Below are positions 15,674 to 25,406 of a stretch of DNA of 64,000 nucleotides, piece after piece. The notes beneath the pieces are model-generated. The model searched no databases. It saw only the letters and a program-made list of their open reading frames with translations, and had not been told where the DNA came from. The translations under genes and the position numbers were made by a program. Each line of letters opens with the position of its first letter. Position 1 is the stretch's first letter. The stretch is from Deltaproteobacteria bacterium (GTDB taxonomy: Bacteria > Bdellovibrionota_C > UBA2361 > SZUA-149 > JADZAE01): assembly GCA_020852715.1 (NCBI GenBank), contig JADZAE010000084.1:1-64000 (forward strand), given 5' to 3'.

Positions 15674-15854
15674 AATTTCAATTCTTCTACGCTGACAACT
15701 CGAGACCACTTCACTATGAGATAATACACTGATCAATGCAACAATATAATCTTTAATATCTTCGGGCTCTTTCCGGTTATACGAACCGCTTCCTTGACAG
15801 TAACCTTTAAATACCTGTATCCAGCCCATGGATTTATAAAAAGACGTAATGATT

Positions 15855-16052
15855 CGTTACTTATTGTTCGAATCAGTATGCTAGGGAAGAGCAGTAAGTG
15901 CGAGCTCGATAAATATCTCGATATCTTGCTAAAAATCTGCCACGGTCCCCGCCACTGTGATTGGGTGAAAAGAGTAATTTAAGCCACTGGATAATCTGGG
16001 AAGGTATTACTTAAAGGCGATGAGCCACCCATAAGTCAGGAAACCTGTTTAT
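15855..16052 (+). promoter_or_regulatory. Cobalamin (B12) riboswitch
   Basis: The conserved blocks appear in order: GCCACGGTCCCCGCCACTGTGA (about 15939-15960, equivalent to the GCCCCCGCAACTGT core), AGCCACTGG, GATGAGCCACC and the B12-box end AAGTCAGGAAACCTG (about 16032-16046). It lies upstream of a TonB-dependent receptor of BtuB type, the classical target. Binding adenosylcobalamin should reduce expression. Outer limits are approximate. Confidence 0.88.
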
Positions 16053-16082
16053 AAATCATAAATAAATATCTGAACTTTTCGG

Positions 16083-16123: not shown

Positions 16124-16208
16124 TGCTTAGAGTTGGAATCCAGCCTATTTAAACTAAGACCTGCCCTCTTACCTCGTTGTTATGGCCACATTATTTAGCG
16201 AGGGTAAA

Positions 16209-18143
16209 ATGGTTACAATCAAAGTATTACATTTAAGATACTGCCTGACGGCATGGGGCGCGTTTGTTTGTTTCTTATCACCGGCCCTAGCTGATTCCAA
16301 TTCTACCGATATTCCGCAGTTGGTAATTGTCGCTAATCGCGCGCCTAGCGTAGTGAACAATGTCGGTCGATCAATTGATCGCATGGAAGTTAGCAATAAC
16401 GATTCAGCAGTGGCATCGAATAATCTCACAAATGTATTAAGTCCGGCCCCTGGGGTTTATATACCGGAGATCGGTGGCCCCGGTGCCCCGGGTGTTATGC
16501 CCATGGAGATTAGAGGATTTCGCAACGGCGGAACAAAACTTTTACTTAATGGCATGGTCTTAGATGATCCTAGTTCAATCAGTGGCAATTATGAAGCCTT
16601 TTACGGTGCCCTGAACCTTTCTGATATAAAAAGCGTGGAACTTTTAAAAGGATCTGCCGGTGTACTTTATGGTTCCGATGCCCAATCCGGTGTACTAAAC
16701 TTGATTCCATATACTCCGGAGAAAGGGCAAAGCCTTAACTTTCAAATGGAAGGTGGAGCTTATGAAACATTTTCCGAAAACATACAGATTAACCAAGGGA
16801 CAGAAGATATGGGATTGTTCTCTTCGTTATTTCGCGAAGATAGTAGCGGCTTGGATACTCATGGTGATTATAATAACACCACATTGCTTTTAAATTCGCT
16901 GGCGAAACCTTTTGCCGCCAACATTACTATTAACCCGATATTTCGTTTTGTAAACGCTAGTAATGATCTTGATACCAGCCCTACTCTTAATGCTGAGGGT
17001 CATCTCGTAACAAACCAAGATACAGAAAATAACACAGTCGATGCTAATGCCTATTTTCTTGGAGTAGCTACTTTATATGAAGCGCAACCAGGTATTGATG
17101 CTCAATTGAATATCTATCACAATCGCACCAATCGTAATTATTATTTTGAATTCTTCGGCCTGCCCAGCACTTCAGATTTAACTGCCGATTCTTTTCATGT
17201 TGAAAATCAATTTGCCATTACTAGCGACAATAAACAAAATAAATTATTATTTGGCCTTGATTATAACTTCCAACATGTATCCACTGATGCCGATTCAGTA
17301 ACAGATGATGAAAGCAGAGAAATATACGGAGCTTATTTACACGATACTTTAGCTATTTTTCAGGATTACTGGGAACTGGCTGGAGGAGTGAGGGTCACAC
17401 ATGTAAGTGACATCAGCTCAACTTTCCCCACTTTAGAAGCCTCAAATACTTTTCACATACCGGCATTGGGCGGAAAAGTTCATTCCAGTATTGCTCAAGG
17501 TTTTCGTGCACCGACCTTATTTGAGACTAAAGGCAATATGCAGGACTATAATACCGGACAAATCGTCAATGTAGGGAACGACGATCTTGATAAAGAAGAA
17601 AGTTTAAGTTGGGACAGCGGTTATGAACAAACTTTGTTTGACGACAAGATAAAACTAGATATCACTTTTTTTCAAATTGACTCTGAGCAGACGATATTAT
17701 TTGATTATGCAAATTTTACCCATATTAATGGCGGCAGCGGAATTTCTCAGGGCATAGAAACAGCTCTCGACTATCAGGTTAATAACTGGCTGACAAACAG
17801 ATGGGCCTTCACTTATTTAGATAAAGCGCAAGGACTTGATCATTCCCGCCGTCAACGTACTCCCTGGAGCTGGGCAACATGCCAATTAAGCGCAGTTATA
17901 GAAAAATTTACACTAACGTCTATGCTTAAGTATAGAGGTGAACAACAAATTGAATTTTATGGTGTCAGCGAAGAGGCTTCAGAACATGGGGTCTTTCTCG
18001 CTGATCTTTTTGTCGGCTACCAAATCGACAGCAATGCCCAAGTGTATGTGGAGGGGAATAACATTTTCAATCAACAATACACCGAAGGAGGCTATAGCAT
18101 GCCTGATGCCGCTTTTTATGTAGGCTTAAGACTTAGTCTTTAA
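16209..18143 (+). CDS. btuB: TonB-dependent vitamin B12 receptor
   Basis: A 644-residue outer membrane receptor. Signal peptide (MVTIKVLHLRYCLTAWGAFVCFLSPALA), TonB-box-like PQLVIVANRA, then a plug domain with LSPAPGVYIPEIGG, MEIRGFRNGG and VELLKGSAGVLYGSDAQSGVLNL, then a 22-strand barrel ending YVGLRLSL. The receptor imports cobalamin using TonB energy. The B12 riboswitch upstream supports the substrate. The start at 16209 has GAGGG four bases upstream; the frame is open nine codons further. No btuCDF or cobalamin genes are adjacent, so the receptor stands alone. Confidence 0.88.
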   Translation: MVTIKVLHLRYCLTAWGAFVCFLSPALADSNSTDIPQLVIVANRAPSVVNNVGRSIDRMEVSNNDSAVASNNLTNVLSPAPGVYIPEIGGPGAPGVMPMEIRGFRNGGTKLLLNGMVLDDPSSISGNYEAFYGALNLSDIKSVELLKGSAGVLYGSDAQSGVLNLIPYTPEKGQSLNFQMEGGAYETFSENIQINQGTEDMGLFSSLFREDSSGLDTHGDYNNTTLLLNSLAKPFAANITINPIFRFVNASNDLDTSPTLNAEGHLVTNQDTENNTVDANAYFLGVATLYEAQPGIDAQLNIYHNRTNRNYYFEFFGLPSTSDLTADSFHVENQFAITSDNKQNKLLFGLDYNFQHVSTDADSVTDDESREIYGAYLHDTLAIFQDYWELAGGVRVTHVSDISSTFPTLEASNTFHIPALGGKVHSSIAQGFRAPTLFETKGNMQDYNTGQIVNVGNDDLDKEESLSWDSGYEQTLFDDKIKLDITFFQIDSEQTILFDYANFTHINGGSGISQGIETALDYQVNNWLTNRWAFTYLDKAQGLDHSRRQRTPWSWATCQLSAVIEKFTLTSMLKYRGEQQIEFYGVSEEASEHGVFLADLFVGYQIDSNAQVYVEGNNIFNQQYTEGGYSMPDAAFYVGLRLSL

Positions 18144-19354: not shown

Positions 19355-20542
19355 CTAGTTGACACTAATTAATAAGCCTTTAAGATAATCCCCTTCCGGA
19401 AAGTTTAGACTCGTATTATGGCAAATAGATTGTTCCAGTCGCTTAATAATTTTCGTGCTGCGCTTGGCATCAACTGCTGCATCGGCAACAATTTTCTGAA
19501 ATAGGGCACTATTGACGTGCCCGGAGCAGGAAAAGGTAAAAAATAATCCACCTGGCTTTAGTAATTTGAAAGCCAATAAATTAATATCTTTATAGCCACG
19601 TGCTCCGGACATTAAGGCATTTTTGCTTTCCACAAATTTTGGCGGATCAAGGATAATTATATCGAATTTGCGATTCTTATCACGATATTTACGCAGTAAC
19701 TCAAAAACATCAGCACAGATAGTTTCATACTTATCCTCGGCAATATTGTTAGCTGACATATTTTCTTTAAGGAGGTCTAAAGTAATTGCCGAAGCCTCAA
19801 CATTAATAACTTTATCCGCTCCGTTTTTTAAAGCATAAACACAATACCCGCCGCTATAGGAAAAGCAATTTAGTATCTCCTTTCCTCGAGCATATTGTCC
19901 TAGCAAGTTACGATTATCTCTCTGATCAAGATAACAACTGGTTTTGTGCCCTTTTTGCACATCAACAAGAAAGGTATGTCCATTTTCTAAAACAGGAACT
20001 CGCTCCGGCGGCATTTCCCCAAACAGAACTCCGCTTTCTAAATTTAATCCTTCTTTCTCTCTGACATCGGCATCTGAACGATTATAAATACCGCGTGGAT
20101 TTAATAATTCACACAGAGCGTTAACTATTTCTTGCCGCCAGCTATCAACTCCGGCGGTTAAAAACTGACATACAAGAAAATTATCATAGCGATCAACAAT
20201 TAAGCCCGGAAGCTGATCAGCCTCGGAGTTTGCAATACGGTAGCAATTAGTCAGTTCGGTATTTATACTTTGTTGACGAAAATTAATTGCTTCTCGAAGA
20301 CGGTTTTTAAGTAAACTAACGTCAAGCGGTACCGATTCCTGAAATGACCAGACACGCACCGCAATTTGTGAATGTTCGGAATAATGCCCATAACCTAAAA
20401 AACGACCTGTGGTGTTTTGTAATTGAATAATATCTCCGGAAGAAACGTTACCTGAAACTTTGGCAATCGCCCCGGAAAACACCCACGGATGTAAGCGTTC
20501 GATTGACTTCTCTCGACCTTGTTTTATCACTACGATTTTCAT
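19355..20542 (-). CDS. rlmI: 23S rRNA (cytosine) methyltransferase RlmI-like
   Basis: 395 residues, the normal length. An N-terminal PUA domain (LHPWVFSGAIAKVSG, GRFLGYGHYS, residues 1-80) is followed by a central EEHEE-type part containing DQRDNRN and a SAM-dependent methyltransferase fold: VLNCF-type motif ILNCFSYSGGYCVYALK, VEAS, and the catalytic-loop motif IIILDPPKFVESK (about residue 297). RlmI methylates C1962 of 23S rRNA (m5C) on SAM. The ATG at 20542 begins MKIVVIKQGREKS. A palindromic repeat element lies in its upstream region. Confidence 0.88.
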   Translation of the reverse strand: MKIVVIKQGREKSIERLHPWVFSGAIAKVSGNVSSGDIIQLQNTTGRFLGYGHYSEHSQIAVRVWSFQESVPLDVSLLKNRLREAINFRQQSINTELTNCYRIANSEADQLPGLIVDRYDNFLVCQFLTAGVDSWRQEIVNALCELLNPRGIYNRSDADVREKEGLNLESGVLFGEMPPERVPVLENGHTFLVDVQKGHKTSCYLDQRDNRNLLGQYARGKEILNCFSYSGGYCVYALKNGADKVINVEASAITLDLLKENMSANNIAEDKYETICADVFELLRKYRDKNRKFDIIILDPPKFVESKNALMSGARGYKDINLLAFKLLKPGGLFFTFSCSGHVNSALFQKIVADAAVDAKRSTKIIKRLEQSICHNTSLNFPEGDYLKGLLISVN

Positions 20543-20581: not shown

Positions 20582-20836
20582 TATCCGGAATGTATCCCGT
20601 CACGACTCATTAATATCTGAAAAAGCAGTTACTTACAAAACATCAAAAATAAAAATTTATATTTTAAAATAACCTGTAACCATCGCGATTCTGAGCCGAA
20701 TACGAGGAAGACGAGTGGCGAGCACCGTAAGTGTAGTGAACTACTCGCAGAGCAATTCGAGAGCCCAAAAGCGGCTCTCGACCCACGATGTCTGACAAAG
20801 TAATCGGCCAAAAGCGTGAACGGGTATTCCGGAATT
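20582..20836. repeat. Complex palindromic repeat element, copy 1
   Basis: Imperfect outer arms TCCGGAATGTATCCCGTCACG (about 20583-20603) and CGTGAACGGGTATTCCGGA (about 20815-20833). Inside are TCGCGATTCTGAGCCGA (20683-20699), a 62-base core (20741-20802) with the hairpin GAGAGCC...GGCTCTC, and CGGCCAAAAGCGTGAACGG (20805-20823). Both flanking blocks recur in the same order at 22735-22845, but the core is inverted there. Noncoding, between rlmI and the PPTase gene. Confidence 0.85.
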
Positions 20837-20853
20837 CAGTTTAGCTAAAGATA

Positions 20854-21498
20854 CTAACTTAATAAATAAGTTAGCACGTAATCATCCTGCCATAAATAAT
20901 GAATACTAACAGGCATATTAAAGCCCATTAGTGCTTTTCTCTGCCCAATAAAACTCATCAAAATCTCGCTTTTGTTTTTCTTTACGCATTGAGCTTCCTG
21001 AAAGCCAAACCACTCTTTGACTAAAGGATAGTGCGCTTTAAAAATCGTCTCTTTAGCCGAAAATAACGACATTATTTCCCTTTCTCGCTGCTCTGGCGCA
21101 TCAGCTAGGTTTTCAACTTCTTTTATAGTAAGAACTCGTTTAGCTATTCCGGTAAAGTTTCTTTTATGGAAATGTTCTAAATCTATTCCTAGCATGTGGA
21201 TTTTAGGATCAGTGCTCACTAGAACAGCCGCATAATTCCCACAGTGAGTAATAGATCCTTTAATGCCTTCACGAAATAGTGGCTGACCACCTACTCCATG
21301 AGTGTAGCTCACGTCAGGTATGGAAAGTTTGGTAAAAACGGTCTGTAATAAATAACTAACCAGCTGTTTTTCTTTATCGCGCTTAGTTAAGTTACCAACG
21401 TTTATGCCATGCTCACAACAATAGGCAACAAAACCCGCATCCCGGTTATCGAGAAGAGAAAACACCGTCTGATTGTCGAATTTTAAATCAAACAACAT
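20854..21498 (-). CDS. 4'-phosphopantetheinyl transferase (EntD/Sfp type)
   Basis: 214 residues. It transfers 4'-phosphopantetheine from CoA to a Ser of a carrier protein, in fatty-acid, polyketide or peptide synthesis. Diagnostic motifs: GSITHCGNYAAV (CoA and substrate site), GIDLE (Mg2+ Asp and Glu, about residue 103) and FSAKETIFKAHYP (W/FS.KE..xK, about 145). The EntD-like proteins are usually 200-240 residues. No carrier-protein or synthase gene lies nearby, so the target is unknown; it may be the only PPTase of the cell. Confidence 0.87.
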   Translation of the reverse strand: MLFDLKFDNQTVFSLLDNRDAGFVAYCCEHGINVGNLTKRDKEKQLVSYLLQTVFTKLSIPDVSYTHGVGGQPLFREGIKGSITHCGNYAAVLVSTDPKIHMLGIDLEHFHKRNFTGIAKRVLTIKEVENLADAPEQREREIMSLFSAKETIFKAHYPLVKEWFGFQEAQCVKKNKSEILMSFIGQRKALMGFNMPVSIHYLWQDDYVLTYLLS

Positions 21499-21810
21499 AT
21501 GCTGTGTTATTTATTACTTTAGTATCCCTGGCTCTCGTTTTATTATTAACCATATAGAGGCTCAATAAGTCTGTACCCAATTAGTCGTTTCCGATTAGGA
21601 AAGGTCTGTAAAAATTGCAAATTATTCAATTTACTCTAGTCAAGAAGTATCAGAAAAGATGACTCTATAATGGGTGCTTTCTCATAAAATTCTATTCAAA
21701 ATATCCAATATTATCAGTTAGTTATGATGGCTTTGGCCTGATGTTTACTAACTTTTAATGATTGGTAATAACCTTTCTGTAAATTAACTACTCAGAGTAT
21801 TAAAGAGTTT
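21499..21810. other. Intergenic region with 23-base repeat
   Basis: No gene seen. Positions 21580-21602 (ATTAGTCGTTTCCGATTAG and 4 more bases) are the exact reverse complement of 3304-3326. This region must hold the divergent promoters of the PPTase and the DjlA-like gene. Confidence 0.5.
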
Positions 21811-22590
21811 ATGTTTATCTTCAAGTTAATTGGGGCAGGAATAGGTTATTCATTGGAGCCCCCTATTGGAAGTTTATTAGGCATAATTATTGGACATGCT
21901 ATAGATGCTGGTCTTGAAGCACGGCAAGAAAATAAACTGGCATCATTATCAGCTAGGAATTCAGCAGCCGCTTTAACTAACCAAATGTTCTTACGTGGGC
22001 TTTTTGGTATGTTTGGCAAAATTGTTCAGGCAAGCGGCAAACTTTCAAAAAAGGAGCAGCAGTCGATCGATAAAATCATTAAATCAAATTTAAAGTTCAC
22101 AAAAAAAACAAAAACAGAAGCGCTAAAATATTTGAAAGAAGGGAGGTTTTCCAATCGTACTTTTGCTTCTTATGCATTGGAATTCTTTGAAGCCAGCGCC
22201 AATGATCATAGTATTCTAAAACCGATACTATTTGCTCTGCTTAATGTCGCTCTTTCTGATGGCTGCATCACTCTTGAAGAAAAACAGTTACTGACAATCG
22301 CTGGGCAAATCTTTGGAATTTCACTGGAACCGCTAAATCAATCTGCAGAACTCGGGTCTGCGACTCCTTCTACTCAAAACGCCGATCCCTACAAAATACT
22401 AGGTTGTAACAAAACCGATCCTCTTTCAGTTATTAGAAAACAGTTTCATAAATTGGCAATCGAATATCATCCAGACAAACTATTATCTAAAGACCTTCCT
22501 GATGATTTCCTGAAATATGCCAATTACCGATTTGCCATAGTTAAACAAGCCTATGATCAAGTTCTTAAAGAAAAGTCTGGGAACAACTGA
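21811..22590 (+). CDS. djlA: DjlA-like TerB/J-domain co-chaperone
   Basis: 259 residues. Hydrophobic Gly-rich N-terminus (FKLIGAGIGYSLEPPIGSLLGIIIGHAIDAG), then a TerB-like helical domain (about 50-165), then a C-terminal J domain ending KQAYDQVLKEK with the essential HPD motif in EYHPDKL (about residue 219). It should stimulate DnaK ATPase, anchored to the inner membrane as in DjlA. The length fits the family (250-270). The ATG has GAG at a poor spacing. An inverted repeat follows its stop by six bases. Confidence 0.85.
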   Translation: MFIFKLIGAGIGYSLEPPIGSLLGIIIGHAIDAGLEARQENKLASLSARNSAAALTNQMFLRGLFGMFGKIVQASGKLSKKEQQSIDKIIKSNLKFTKKTKTEALKYLKEGRFSNRTFASYALEFFEASANDHSILKPILFALLNVALSDGCITLEEKQLLTIAGQIFGISLEPLNQSAELGSATPSTQNADPYKILGCNKTDPLSVIRKQFHKLAIEYHPDKLLSKDLPDDFLKYANYRFAIVKQAYDQVLKEKSGNN

Positions 22591-22596
22591 ATAGTT

Positions 22597-22666
22597 ATAC
22601 CGTACACAAGAAGTGAGTTGAAACAAAGACCTTGTTACCGGGGAAAACTACTCTTGTGTACGGTAT
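22597..22666. repeat. Inverted pair of dispersed ATACCGTACA motifs
   Basis: ATACCGTACACAAGA (22597-22611) and its exact reverse complement (22652-22666) enclose 40 bases, six bases after the djlA-like stop. The left arm continues as AGTGAGTTGAA (to 22622), a 26-base motif found again at 26459-26484 and 48486-48511. It may act as a terminator, but no T-tract follows. Confidence 0.7.
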
Positions 22667-22734
22667 AGAGAAAATCGACGATGGTTTCCTCGGCAGCGAA
22701 AACCCGATTCTCTCCCGAAAATGCTCTTAATGAA

Positions 22735-22845
22735 GCCGTCGCGATTTTGAGCCGACTACTTTGTCAGACATCGTGGGTCGAGAGCTGCTTTTGGGCTCTC
22801 GCATTGCTCCGCGAGTAGCCGGCCAAAAGCGTGAACGGTTACGGC
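22735..22845. repeat. Complex palindromic repeat element, copy 2 (core inverted)
   Basis: Flank TCGCGATTTTGAGCCGA (22739-22755), 62-base core (22757-22818), flank CGGCCAAAAGCGTGAACGG (22820-22838). The core is the reverse complement of 20741-20802 with three mismatches, whereas both flanks keep the orientation of copy 1. The core borders are CTAC on one side and GTAG on the other. A fragment (GCCGTAACCGTTCA) recurs at 28314-28327. Confidence 0.88.
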
Positions 22846-23099: not shown

Positions 23100-25406
23100 G
23101 TGAAACTTAAATTCTTCATTTTTTTGTTTTTTTTAAACGCCTGTTTATCCTGCGATGGTCAGGCCGACTCCTTATCGCTGGATGATGGCAATAACTATGT
23201 GAAGGGGCAAATTATTTGCGATTATGAGCAATTGCCTAGTGACCCCTCTGTTCTTGAAACCGCTCCCAGAATAGCTGTCTATTTAACAATTGAAGAAGGA
23301 TGGCACATATATTGGTTAAATAGCGGTGATGCTGGGATCCCAACCCAAATAAAATGGTCGCTGCCGGAAGGATTTGAAAGCACAGAAACAAACTGGCCTG
23401 TTCCGCTTCTTATTGAAGAAGCAGGAGGCATTCTAACCTTTGGTTACAAAAACTCAGTGGCACTAATTTCAAATTTAAAATTACCACAGGGCAATATAAT
23501 CAGCGATTATATTGAGATTAAAGCGCTGGTTTCTTTTTTGGTTTGTAAAGATTTATGCATACCGGGAGAGTTAGAGCTTAATAAAACTCTGCAAGTAGTA
23601 GGTAATAAACAAATAGCCTCATCTGCGCAGAGGGATTTGCTTGATAACTTTGAAAAAGATGTTCCGAAAAGTATTGATTTAATACAACGTGAAAATCCTC
23701 AGTTAAATTTGAAGATTACCAATAGTCTGGAGAGCGCTGAATCGGGGGATCAAGGAATGTTGACCTTTGAGCTTAAGAATATAAGTGATGTTTCTGCCGA
23801 TAACTTAATGGCGCAGATATTTCCCTTTCGCAATACAAACATAACATTTGACCGGGCTTATTTTGTTAAACCTCCCAAGAATGGCAAAAGTACTTTTATT
23901 GTTTTACCCTACAAGATCGCCGCTCATACCAAGTCTGATAATTTAATTTTAGCCGGTATCACTAGTCTTAATAAAAAGCCTTTTGCTAGCCCTACCGATC
24001 TTAGTTTTTATTGGACGCAGATGGTAAATTTGAATGGTCATATTGTAAACGAAGAGTTTCCATTAGCTGCAAACTCAAAAGGTAAACTACTGACGTTTCG
24101 CTACAGCAGCGAAGTGAAAGGTAATGACAAATTTTCTAACAAGCTTAACTACTCTCTAATGCTATTGCCATTTCTTGCTATTGTTGCTGGCATCATCTTA
24201 AATTTCATGCCCTGCGTTCTTCCCGTTCTATCACTGAAAATTTATTCAATCGTTAGCAATGCTCAATCATCTGTAAAAGTTCAAAGACAAAGTGCTTTGG
24301 GGTATCTATTAGGTGTGGAGTTTTCTTTTCTTATTCTCGCGCTAATAATCATCGGGTTAAAAAGTTTAGGTGTGGAAGTTGGCTGGGGTTTCCAATTTCA
24401 GAATCCAATATTTGTTTATCTTTTAAGTATCATTGTGTTTTTATTTTCCTTGGCTTGTTTTGATGTTTATCAGTTTAAACTCCCAGCTGGTCAAAAAATA
24501 GATAAATTAATTGATATAGAAAATAATATTTTCAGGAAAAGCCTCCTGGAGGGAATACTAGCTACAATTTTGGCGACACCATGTAGCGCTCCTTTTCTAG
24601 GAACTGTGTTAGCGGTAGCTTTTGCCGCCAGCAATCATGTTACAATCGTCTTGTTTGCCTGTATTGGTTTTGGATTAGCGCTACCTTATGTGATTATATC
24701 ATTGAATAGTCGGCTATCTTCCTTTTTACCAAGGCCCGGCGTTTGGATGATAAGATTAAAGCAAATCATGGGGCTCTTACTTTTGGCTACCGTCGCGTGG
24801 CTTTTAAGTTTATTAACTAATTCTTCGGTTGATGGCGTGATTGGCGGGATCAAAGCAATACTTGCTATTGTGCTTATTATTGTAGTTTTTCGAACGTTAC
24901 CTCGTTTCCATTCACGCTATGAATTTTTGTCACTAGTATTACTAATTTCCTGCATCAGTTACTATTTTCTTCCTGAACCAATTGAGAAAACAGAAGGAAC
25001 GCTAAGGGAACAAACTGGCAGTCATAAAATAGACTGGCTTCCTTATTCAGAAGAACTCATTCATCAGTATCAAAGTGAAAACAAACCGATTTTCATTATG
25101 TTTACTGCTGATTGGTGCTTGACCTGCAAGTTTAATGAAAAATTTATAATCGAAACCAATGCTGTAGTAAAAGCTATTAGCGAATATAAAATTATCCCCA
25201 TCAAAGGGGACTGGAGCGATGGTAATAGCACTATCACTCGTGCTTTAAAAAAATATGGCGTTAATTGGGTTCCTTTTTATGTAATCTTACCTCGCAATGG
25301 ACTGCCGGCAGTTTTTCCGGGGACGGTTTTTACACCAAAAAAATTAATTGATACTTTTAAGCAAATTTCAGCCAATGGCCCTGACAGCCGTCCTGTTCCT
25401 CGCTAA
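23100..25406 (+). CDS. dsbD: Thiol:disulfide interchange protein DsbD
   Basis: 768 residues. It carries electrons from cytoplasmic thioredoxin to periplasmic thiol proteins. N-terminal signal (MKLKFFIFLFFLNACLSC), a periplasmic alpha domain with VCKDLCIPGE (paired Cys, about residue 152), a membrane core of eight helices with FMPCVLPVLSLK and TPCSAPFLG (redox Cys), and a C-terminal thioredoxin domain with ADWCLTCK (about 670). It is longer than the E. coli protein (about 565) because the N-terminal domain is of the larger ScsB/DsbD kind. GTG start at 23100; the ribosome site is weak. Substrates such as cytochrome c maturation or DsbC are not in the window. Confidence 0.9.
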   Translation: MKLKFFIFLFFLNACLSCDGQADSLSLDDGNNYVKGQIICDYEQLPSDPSVLETAPRIAVYLTIEEGWHIYWLNSGDAGIPTQIKWSLPEGFESTETNWPVPLLIEEAGGILTFGYKNSVALISNLKLPQGNIISDYIEIKALVSFLVCKDLCIPGELELNKTLQVVGNKQIASSAQRDLLDNFEKDVPKSIDLIQRENPQLNLKITNSLESAESGDQGMLTFELKNISDVSADNLMAQIFPFRNTNITFDRAYFVKPPKNGKSTFIVLPYKIAAHTKSDNLILAGITSLNKKPFASPTDLSFYWTQMVNLNGHIVNEEFPLAANSKGKLLTFRYSSEVKGNDKFSNKLNYSLMLLPFLAIVAGIILNFMPCVLPVLSLKIYSIVSNAQSSVKVQRQSALGYLLGVEFSFLILALIIIGLKSLGVEVGWGFQFQNPIFVYLLSIIVFLFSLACFDVYQFKLPAGQKIDKLIDIENNIFRKSLLEGILATILATPCSAPFLGTVLAVAFAASNHVTIVLFACIGFGLALPYVIISLNSRLSSFLPRPGVWMIRLKQIMGLLLLATVAWLLSLLTNSSVDGVIGGIKAILAIVLIIVVFRTLPRFHSRYEFLSLVLLISCISYYFLPEPIEKTEGTLREQTGSHKIDWLPYSEELIHQYQSENKPIFIMFTADWCLTCKFNEKFIIETNAVVKAISEYKIIPIKGDWSDGNSTITRALKKYGVNWVPFYVILPRNGLPAVFPGTVFTPKKLIDTFKQISANGPDSRPVPR

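What the first reader, a model, noticed from the sequence alone, without database searches (positions are those of the whole stretch)
20741..22838. Repeat pair in which the 62-base core is inverted but the flanks are not
At 20683-20823 and 22739-22838 the flanks TCGCGATT(C/T)TGAGCCGA and CGGCCAAAAGCGTGAACGG have the same orientation and order, yet the 62-base core (20741-20802 vs 22757-22818) is reverse-complemented with only three mismatches. Copy 1 also has about 41 extra bases between left flank and core. The core borders are short inverted sequences (GCCGACTAC / GTAGCCGGC in copy 2). This could be a small invertible segment, or a hairpin-based element formed by inversion at its palindromic arms. 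It may also be a structured RNA or REP-like mobile unit.
Basis: seen in the sequence. Interest (0 to 1): 0.65.

Follow-up and report, generated by a model that had tools for sequence, protein, structure and literature searches.

The report
Hairpin repeat with flipped core
The two window copies belong to a large, apparently undescribed family of hairpin-forming DNA repeats found in several bacterial phyla; the flipped centre of one copy is best read as a single copying error inside a hairpin, not a genetic switch.

Summary
The 62-base cores (20741-20802 and 22757-22818) are inverted relative to each other with 3 mismatches, while the flanks keep their order, and copy 1 carries 41 extra bases. 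The reading as an invertible switch is not supported. About 30 places in this genome hold the repeat. The inverted junction occurs once, in copy 2; 21 other sites have the ordinary junction. No recombinase was found near by.

Copy 1 is a 236-bp non-autonomous unit of IS66 type, bounded by a perfect 8-bp target duplication (TCCGGAAT). Copy 2 is reproduced exactly in length (111/111 ungapped, 105 identical) by one double template switch at short inverted repeats in a longer relative (L005 type). That single event explains both the inversion and the missing bases.

The wider result is more interesting. The ~127-nt core is a rod-like hairpin with very strong covariation (38/39 pairs with double changes). 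It occurs in 15 of 46 held genomes of the phylum, up to 38 copies each, and in MAGs labelled Betaproteobacteria, Muproteobacteria, Clostridia, Parcubacteria and Bacteroidetes. No Rfam family matches, and no held paper contains its motif strings. Many copies sit at the centre of copy-specific inverted repeats. Its mobiliser and function are unknown.

The parts
20584..20591 (.). 8-bp target-site duplication TCCGGAAT, left
   Evidence: Perfect 8-bp direct repeat at both ends of copy 1
20592..20827 (+). Copy 1: 236-bp non-autonomous IS66-type unit (left end GTATCCCGTCACG, right end CGTGAACGGGTAT) made of an AT-rich left part and the structured hairpin
   Evidence: Ends and target duplication; family copies compared
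20676..20827 (+). Structured hairpin of copy 1, with an extra side hairpin (TTCGAGAGCCC...GGCTCTCGA) compared with the 127-nt basic form
   Evidence: Covariance model match 83.6 bits; 20683-20823 folds at -51.7 kcal/mol, z -4.0
20741..20802 (+). 62-base core, ordinary orientation
   Evidence: 3 mismatches to the reverse complement of 22757-22818
20828..20835 (.). 8-bp target-site duplication TCCGGAAT, right
22732..22842 (+). Copy 2: 111-bp hairpin with rearranged centre; ordinary left and right arms, no AT-rich left part, no recognisable target duplication
   Evidence: Model matches on both strands (+33.7, -28.9 bits); unique junction
22751..22755 (+). Left switch point: GCCGA shared by the left arm and the inverted right arm
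   Evidence: Alignment of copy 2 with the predicted switch product
22757..22818 (-). 62-base core, inverted orientation
22813..22817 (+). Right switch point: AGTAG (within one base) shared by the inverted core and the right arm

Best explanation
Both copies belong to one family of intergenic repeats whose core is a long, imperfect, rod-like hairpin. Shown: the family, its conserved structure, and the IS66-type ends and 8-bp target duplications of the full-length units in this genome, including copy 1. Inferred: copy 1 was inserted by an IS66-family transposase acting in trans. Inferred: copy 2 comes from a longer unit of the L005 type in which the copying polymerase switched, at the 5-base inverted match GCCGA, to the complementary strand, copied the core backwards, and switched back at AGTAG. 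That one event inverted the core and removed the left half. The same kind of fold-back copying may also help keep the two arms complementary, but the conserved internal-loop sequences imply that something (a protein, or an RNA function) also recognises the element.
For: The predicted switch product of L005 or L006 aligns to copy 2 over 111/111 positions without a gap, 105 identical (score 99), against a best un-inverted alignment to the same parents with about 210 gap positions (scores 20-22); copy 2 also shares the GCTGCTTTTGG variant with L005. The inverted junction occurs once in the genome. 8-bp duplications at full-length units: 7 of 12 perfect and two more at 7/8, mean 6.9 matches against 4.8 when ends are re-paired at random, maximum 6.2 in 2000 re-pairings. 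A degraded IS66 copy in the same genome has terminal repeats GTAACCCTTCACG / GCAACCCTTCACG against GTAACCGTTCACG here. Structure: on 11 copies; on 45 (89.2% paired against 63.8% shuffled, covariation 0.598, at most 0.151 when slid); on 43 distinct matches gathered with the finished model, most of them not in its training set (0.704 against 0.168). Template switching between inverted repeats is documented to homogenise arms and invert spacers (PMC8604942) and to create and maintain hairpins (PMC8794818).
Against: A two-step history (inversion, then deletion) would give nearly the same sequence. The direct parent of copy 2 is not seen; only relatives about 95% identical are. Copy 2 has no recognisable target duplication, so how it reached this site is unknown. 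Reads could not be inspected. Mobilisation by IS66 rests on ends and target duplications only; the intact 508-aa IS66 transposase in the genome was not linked to matching ends. Pair counts were made on alignments fitted to the model.
Confidence: 0.77

Rival explanations
1. A small invertible DNA segment: a recombinase flips the core between short inverted sites and so switches neighbouring expression.
For: The core lies between short inverted matches (CTACT / AGTAG), and the two orientations exist in two copies.
Against: Only 1 of 22 junction sites is inverted; no recombinase family among ten flanking ORFs; the switch points are 5-base matches that are part of the hairpin stem; copy 2 also lost the left half, which a simple flip would not cause.
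Confidence: 0.04
2. REP-like elements moved by a Y1 (REP-associated) transposase acting on the hairpin.
For: Eight Y1_Tnp genes in the genome; dispersed hairpins in intergenic regions.
Against: Five of 15 genomes with the element have no Y1_Tnp hit (G004, G008, G009, G011, G034; one of these is 94% complete), while 27 of 31 genomes without the element do have one. No element was found in the fetched stretches around four of the Y1 genes.
Confidence: 0.07
3. The element is a conserved structured RNA (a small RNA or transcript-end structure) spread by hitchhiking on transposons; the covariation reflects selection on the RNA. This is compatible with the template-switch origin of copy 2.
For: Very strong covariation with conserved internal-loop sequences across phyla; some copies lie directly at tRNA gene ends (L088, L131, L101, L159).
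Against: Found near genes in every relative orientation (tandem 14, convergent 11, divergent 4 of 42 with simple ORF calls); no Rfam relative; no expression data; fold-back copying alone can generate paired changes (PMC8794818).
Confidence: 0.3
4. Assembly error at copy 2.
For: The genome is a draft in 84 contigs and could not be checked against reads.
Against: The inverted stretch is under 80 bases, shorter than ordinary short reads, with unique flanks on both sides in one contig, and it has its own base differences from every other copy compared.
Confidence: 0.04

Closest known systems
Non-autonomous units (MITEs) of the IS66 family
   Same: Ends beginning GTAAC/GTATC, 8-bp target duplications, no coding capacity, a degraded IS66 copy with near-identical ends in the same genome.
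   Different: They carry a conserved structured hairpin that also occurs outside IS66-type ends in other genomes and phyla.
Stem-loop repeat families of bacterial genomes (systematic survey PMC2267715; ERIC- and REP-type repeats)
   Same: Dispersed, mostly intergenic, imperfect palindromes with a shared predicted structure.
   Different: Structure and internal-loop motifs are shared across several phyla, and the outer stem is often copy-specific. Sequence comparison with ERIC or the 92 survey families was not done.
Template-switch mutations at inverted repeats (PMC8604942, PMC8794818)
   Same: Spacer inversion between short inverted repeats and arm homogenisation.
   Different: Here the event also removed one side of the spacer, and it hit a dispersed mobile repeat.

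Membership tests
IS66-type non-autonomous unit (copy 1 and full-length relatives) | 8-bp target duplication | tested here: met
   7/12 perfect, 2 more 7/8, copy 1 perfect; 8-bp DR stated for IS66 in PMC11946415
IS66-type non-autonomous unit (copy 1 and full-length relatives) | Terminal inverted repeats of 20-30 bp starting GTAAGCG or similar | tested here: inconclusive
   Ends are GTAACCGTTCACG and GTATCCGTTCACGAC: GTA(A/T)C start is met, GTAAGCG is not exact; ISDge4 of the IS66 family has GTAACTGCTCAGCA (PMC12898284)
IS66-type non-autonomous unit (copy 1 and full-length relatives) | Related autonomous element with matching ends in the genome | tested here: inconclusive
   Degraded copy in contig 61 has ends that differ from the unit's by one to three bases in 13; ends of the intact 508-aa copy were not found
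IS66-type unit (copy 2) | 8-bp target duplication | tested here: not met
   No matching 8-mers seen beside 22732-22842 (read by eye)
REP/RAYT system | Presence linked to a Y1 REP-associated transposase | tested here: not met
   10/15 carriers against 27/31 non-carriers have PF01797
Invertible promoter or phase-variable segment | Linked recombinase and both orientations at one site | tested here: not met
   No recombinase among ten flanking ORFs; one inverted copy among 22 sites; reads not available
Known structured RNA (Rfam 15) | Match to a curated family | tested here: not met
   No match at the element
Integron attC site | R'/R'' core sites GTTRRRY / RYYYAAC and recombination by IntI | not tested
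   Considered because of covarying arms; no systematic test was made

The most novel reading that the evidence does not exclude
A cross-phylum mobile hairpin whose body (motifs GACGAGG, GAGCAGC, ACGAAGTA in internal loops) is recognised by an unknown factor, and whose outer stem is taken from the insertion site: fold-back copying makes an inverted copy of the neighbouring DNA, even of tRNA 3' ends, so that every copy ends up inside its own palindrome. It rides in units of different transposon families in different hosts.
Probability: 0.3. Interest if true: 0.78.

Novelty: new variant of a known kind. Interest (0 to 1): 0.52.

Why it matters
The flipped core is a clean natural example of spacer inversion by template switching in a bacterial repeat. 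The family itself would matter more: a structured element shared by several phyla, with up to 38 copies per genome, absent from Rfam, and with its strongly covarying stem often continued into copy-specific inverted repeats. It gives a direct test of whether paired changes in hairpins come from selection or from fold-back copying, which is an open question for all covariation-based structure calls.

Tried and rejected
Invertible switch: rejected. REP/RAYT link: not supported by co-occurrence. Known RNA family: none. Plasmid and phage copies: none by blastn, none in viral contigs by pattern. An RNA pseudoknot suggested by the exchange of GCACC/GGAGC between copies was dropped because the consensus is one nested rod. 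'Insertion into pre-existing terminators' as a general rule was not adopted: tRNA-end sequence takes part in the inverted repeat in two tRNA loci (L088 with its sister L131, and L101), and two Oscillospiraceae sites have empty relatives with no palindrome there; but some stems do look like terminators (L114, L159), so a mixed picture remains. The Solirubrobacteraceae pattern hit (L146) was a chance match: no model hit in its genome. The first pattern scan of genome contigs with the window-type sequence found nothing.

Full report
What was claimed and what is there. This is correct: the core differs by 3 of 62 bases after reverse complementation, the right flank is a direct repeat, and copy 1 is 41 bases longer between the same outer points (152 against 111). 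The next best match to the core anywhere in the window is at chance level (31 of 62). Both cores lie in intergenic DNA. Copy 1 sits between an RNA-methyltransferase-like gene (19355-20542, -) and a phosphopantetheinyl transferase gene (20854-21498, -); copy 2 lies between a TerB/DnaJ-domain gene (21811-22590, +) and a DsbD-like gene (23100-25406, +).

The pair is part of a family. A search of the window's own genome gave 43 matches, many of them the two halves of one unit, on about 30 places. Full-length units run from GTATCCGTTCACGAC to CGTGAACGGTTAC and are 194 to 405 bp long, the longer ones through extra side hairpins. Seven of twelve, copy 1 among them, are flanked by perfect 8-bp duplications (copy 1: TCCGGAAT at 20584-20591 and 20828-20835) and two more by 7/8 matches; re-pairing ends at random never reached the observed mean in 2000 trials. 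Ends starting GTAA and 8-bp duplications are the marks of the IS66 family (PMC11946415; PMC12898284). A degraded IS66 transposase copy in the same genome has ends GTAACCCTTCACG and GCAACCCTTCACG. I therefore file copy 1 as a non-autonomous IS66-type unit. That an IS66 transposase moved it is inference.

Copy 2. The motif GAGCCGACTACTTTGTCAGA, allowing 3 mismatches, occurs at 22 sites in the genome. Only copy 2 has GAG before the shared CCGACTAC; the other sites read TGG, the ordinary right arm. So all other copies keep one fixed relation of arm and core. I built, for each relative, the product of a double template switch: left arm up to GCCGA, then the reverse complement of the stretch CTACT...AGTAG, then the right arm. 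For L005 and L006 this product has exactly 111 bases and matches copy 2 ungapped with 105 identities; without inversion the same parents align with about 210 gap positions and scores of 20-22 instead of 99. The variant GCTGCTTTTGG is shared with L005. One event thus accounts for inversion and loss of the left half. Template switching between short inverted repeats is known to invert spacers and homogenise arms (PMC8604942) and to create and repair hairpin stems (PMC8794818). An invertible switch would need several inverted copies or a recombinase; neither was found.

What the element is. Eleven basic copies fold as one nested rod with 17 of 39 pairs showing double compensatory changes. A covariance model from these copies found further copies in seven other genomes (six other genera) of the order. 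A second model from 45 diverse copies found copies in 15 of the 46 held genomes of the phylum, 38 in one of them. The phylum's name was not given; one member genome, G008, has the contig lengths and hit positions of 'Deltaproteobacteria bacterium isolate SJ526' (inference). A pattern scan of GTDB contigs for GACGAGGMRCGG...CCGYRACGAAGWAW gave 15 contigs, five from SJ526 and others labelled Betaproteobacteria, Candidatus Muproteobacteria, Oscillospiraceae, Clostridia, Parcubacteria, Bacteroidetes, an unclassified bacterium and Solirubrobacteraceae. Model search of the nine genomes other than SJ526 found 2 to 8 copies in eight; the Solirubrobacteraceae one had none and is a chance pattern hit, which serves as a negative control. 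These are MAGs, so single labels may be wrong through contamination, but several copies per genome in eight genomes are hard to explain that way.

Structure evidence. On 45 copies, 89.2% of cells pair against 63.8% after shuffling, 38 of 39 pairs have changes on both sides, and the covariation score is 0.598 against at most 0.151 when partners are slid. On 43 distinct matches gathered afterwards with the finished model, most of them not in its training set, the figures are 84.3% against 49.9%, 39 of 39, and 0.704 against at most 0.159. Both alignments were fitted to the structure, which inflates the counts, but not to this degree under the slid control. Between the stems lie conserved internal-loop motifs (GACGAGG opposite ACGAAGTA; CGAG opposite TGAGCAGC; read). 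They look like tandem YGAR/YGAR G-A motifs; this reading is from my own knowledge. No Rfam family matches, and no held paper contains the motif strings.

Copy-specific stems. Outside the model, 20 of 47 copies, nearly all from the phylum, have flanks that pair with each other better than the 99th percentile of flanks taken from different copies. Examples are 22 bp in L098, 24 bp in L089 and about 30 bp in L157/L165. Some of these stems are recognisable ends of other mobile units: GGGAAGCTCTGA with CTAG on both sides in L136 and related ends in L111/L115 (IS5-like by my reading), and GTAAGCGTTCAGG with an 8-bp TAATTAAT duplication in L153. Others take in host sequence: in L088 and its sister-genome counterpart L131 the stem contains the last nine bases of a tRNA gene and their inverted copy, and L101 shows the same for another tRNA with more decay. 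A tRNA 3' end is constrained, so the opposite arm is likelier to be the copy. This fits fold-back copying that extends the hairpin into its flank. Empty relatives exist for two Oscillospiraceae copies. One sits between two genes that look like moeA and moaA, where G074 and G071 have only 10-20 bases and no palindrome, and G047 a remnant. The other sits just after a stop codon, present in G049 and G047 and absent in G074 and G073. In those two sites no pre-existing palindrome is seen, but their copy-specific stems are also short, so they do not decide the question for the window's phylum.

Who moves it. Presence of Y1 transposases does not track the element: 10 of 15 carriers and 27 of 31 non-carriers have them. 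No copy was found in viral contigs by pattern, or by blastn in plasmids or phages. My best view is that different transposons carry it in different hosts. Whether it also has its own mode of movement, and whether RNA or DNA is the functional form, is open.

Verdict. The flipped core is real and well explained as a one-off template switch in a mobile hairpin; the reading as a switch is rejected. The family behind it appears undescribed as far as these tools can tell, and deserves follow-up.

Noticed in passing
window 22596-22667: A perfect 16-bp inverted repeat (TATACCGTACACAAGA / TCTTGTGTACGGTATA) with a 40-base interior, just after the TerB/DnaJ-domain gene and about 65 bp before copy 2; terminator-like in place but without a T-run.
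   Followed up: no
L017 (around 1400-1500), L049 (around 1370-1500), L003 upstream of the element: A second repeat with ends AAGCCTTCACA...TGTGAAGGCTT lies inside or beside several copies of the hairpin element, in L049 replacing its right arm.
   Followed up: no
L037 and L036, around Y1 transposase genes: Short repeats GGTACCGGGTGCTAGT (L037) and GGTGCCCTGCACC-like (L036) cluster around Y1 transposase genes and may be the true REP-type partners of those genes.
   Followed up: no
L088 left flank (G012) near the tRNA gene: Besides the element, partial direct and inverted copies of the tRNA 3' end (GTCCCATCGCCAGCTCCATTTTCGC) lie within about 250 bp, suggesting repeated copying events at this site.
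   Followed up: partly
aligned copies, A1 columns 48-52 with 75-79: Two groups of copies have GCACC...GGAGC or GGAGC...GCACC at the same stem, both keeping a central A-A mismatch; this exchange is not explained by a simple template switch.
   Followed up: partly
window 15841-16066: Cobalamin riboswitch (77.3 bits) upstream of the ORF 16182-18143, which looks like a TonB-dependent receptor.
   Followed up: no
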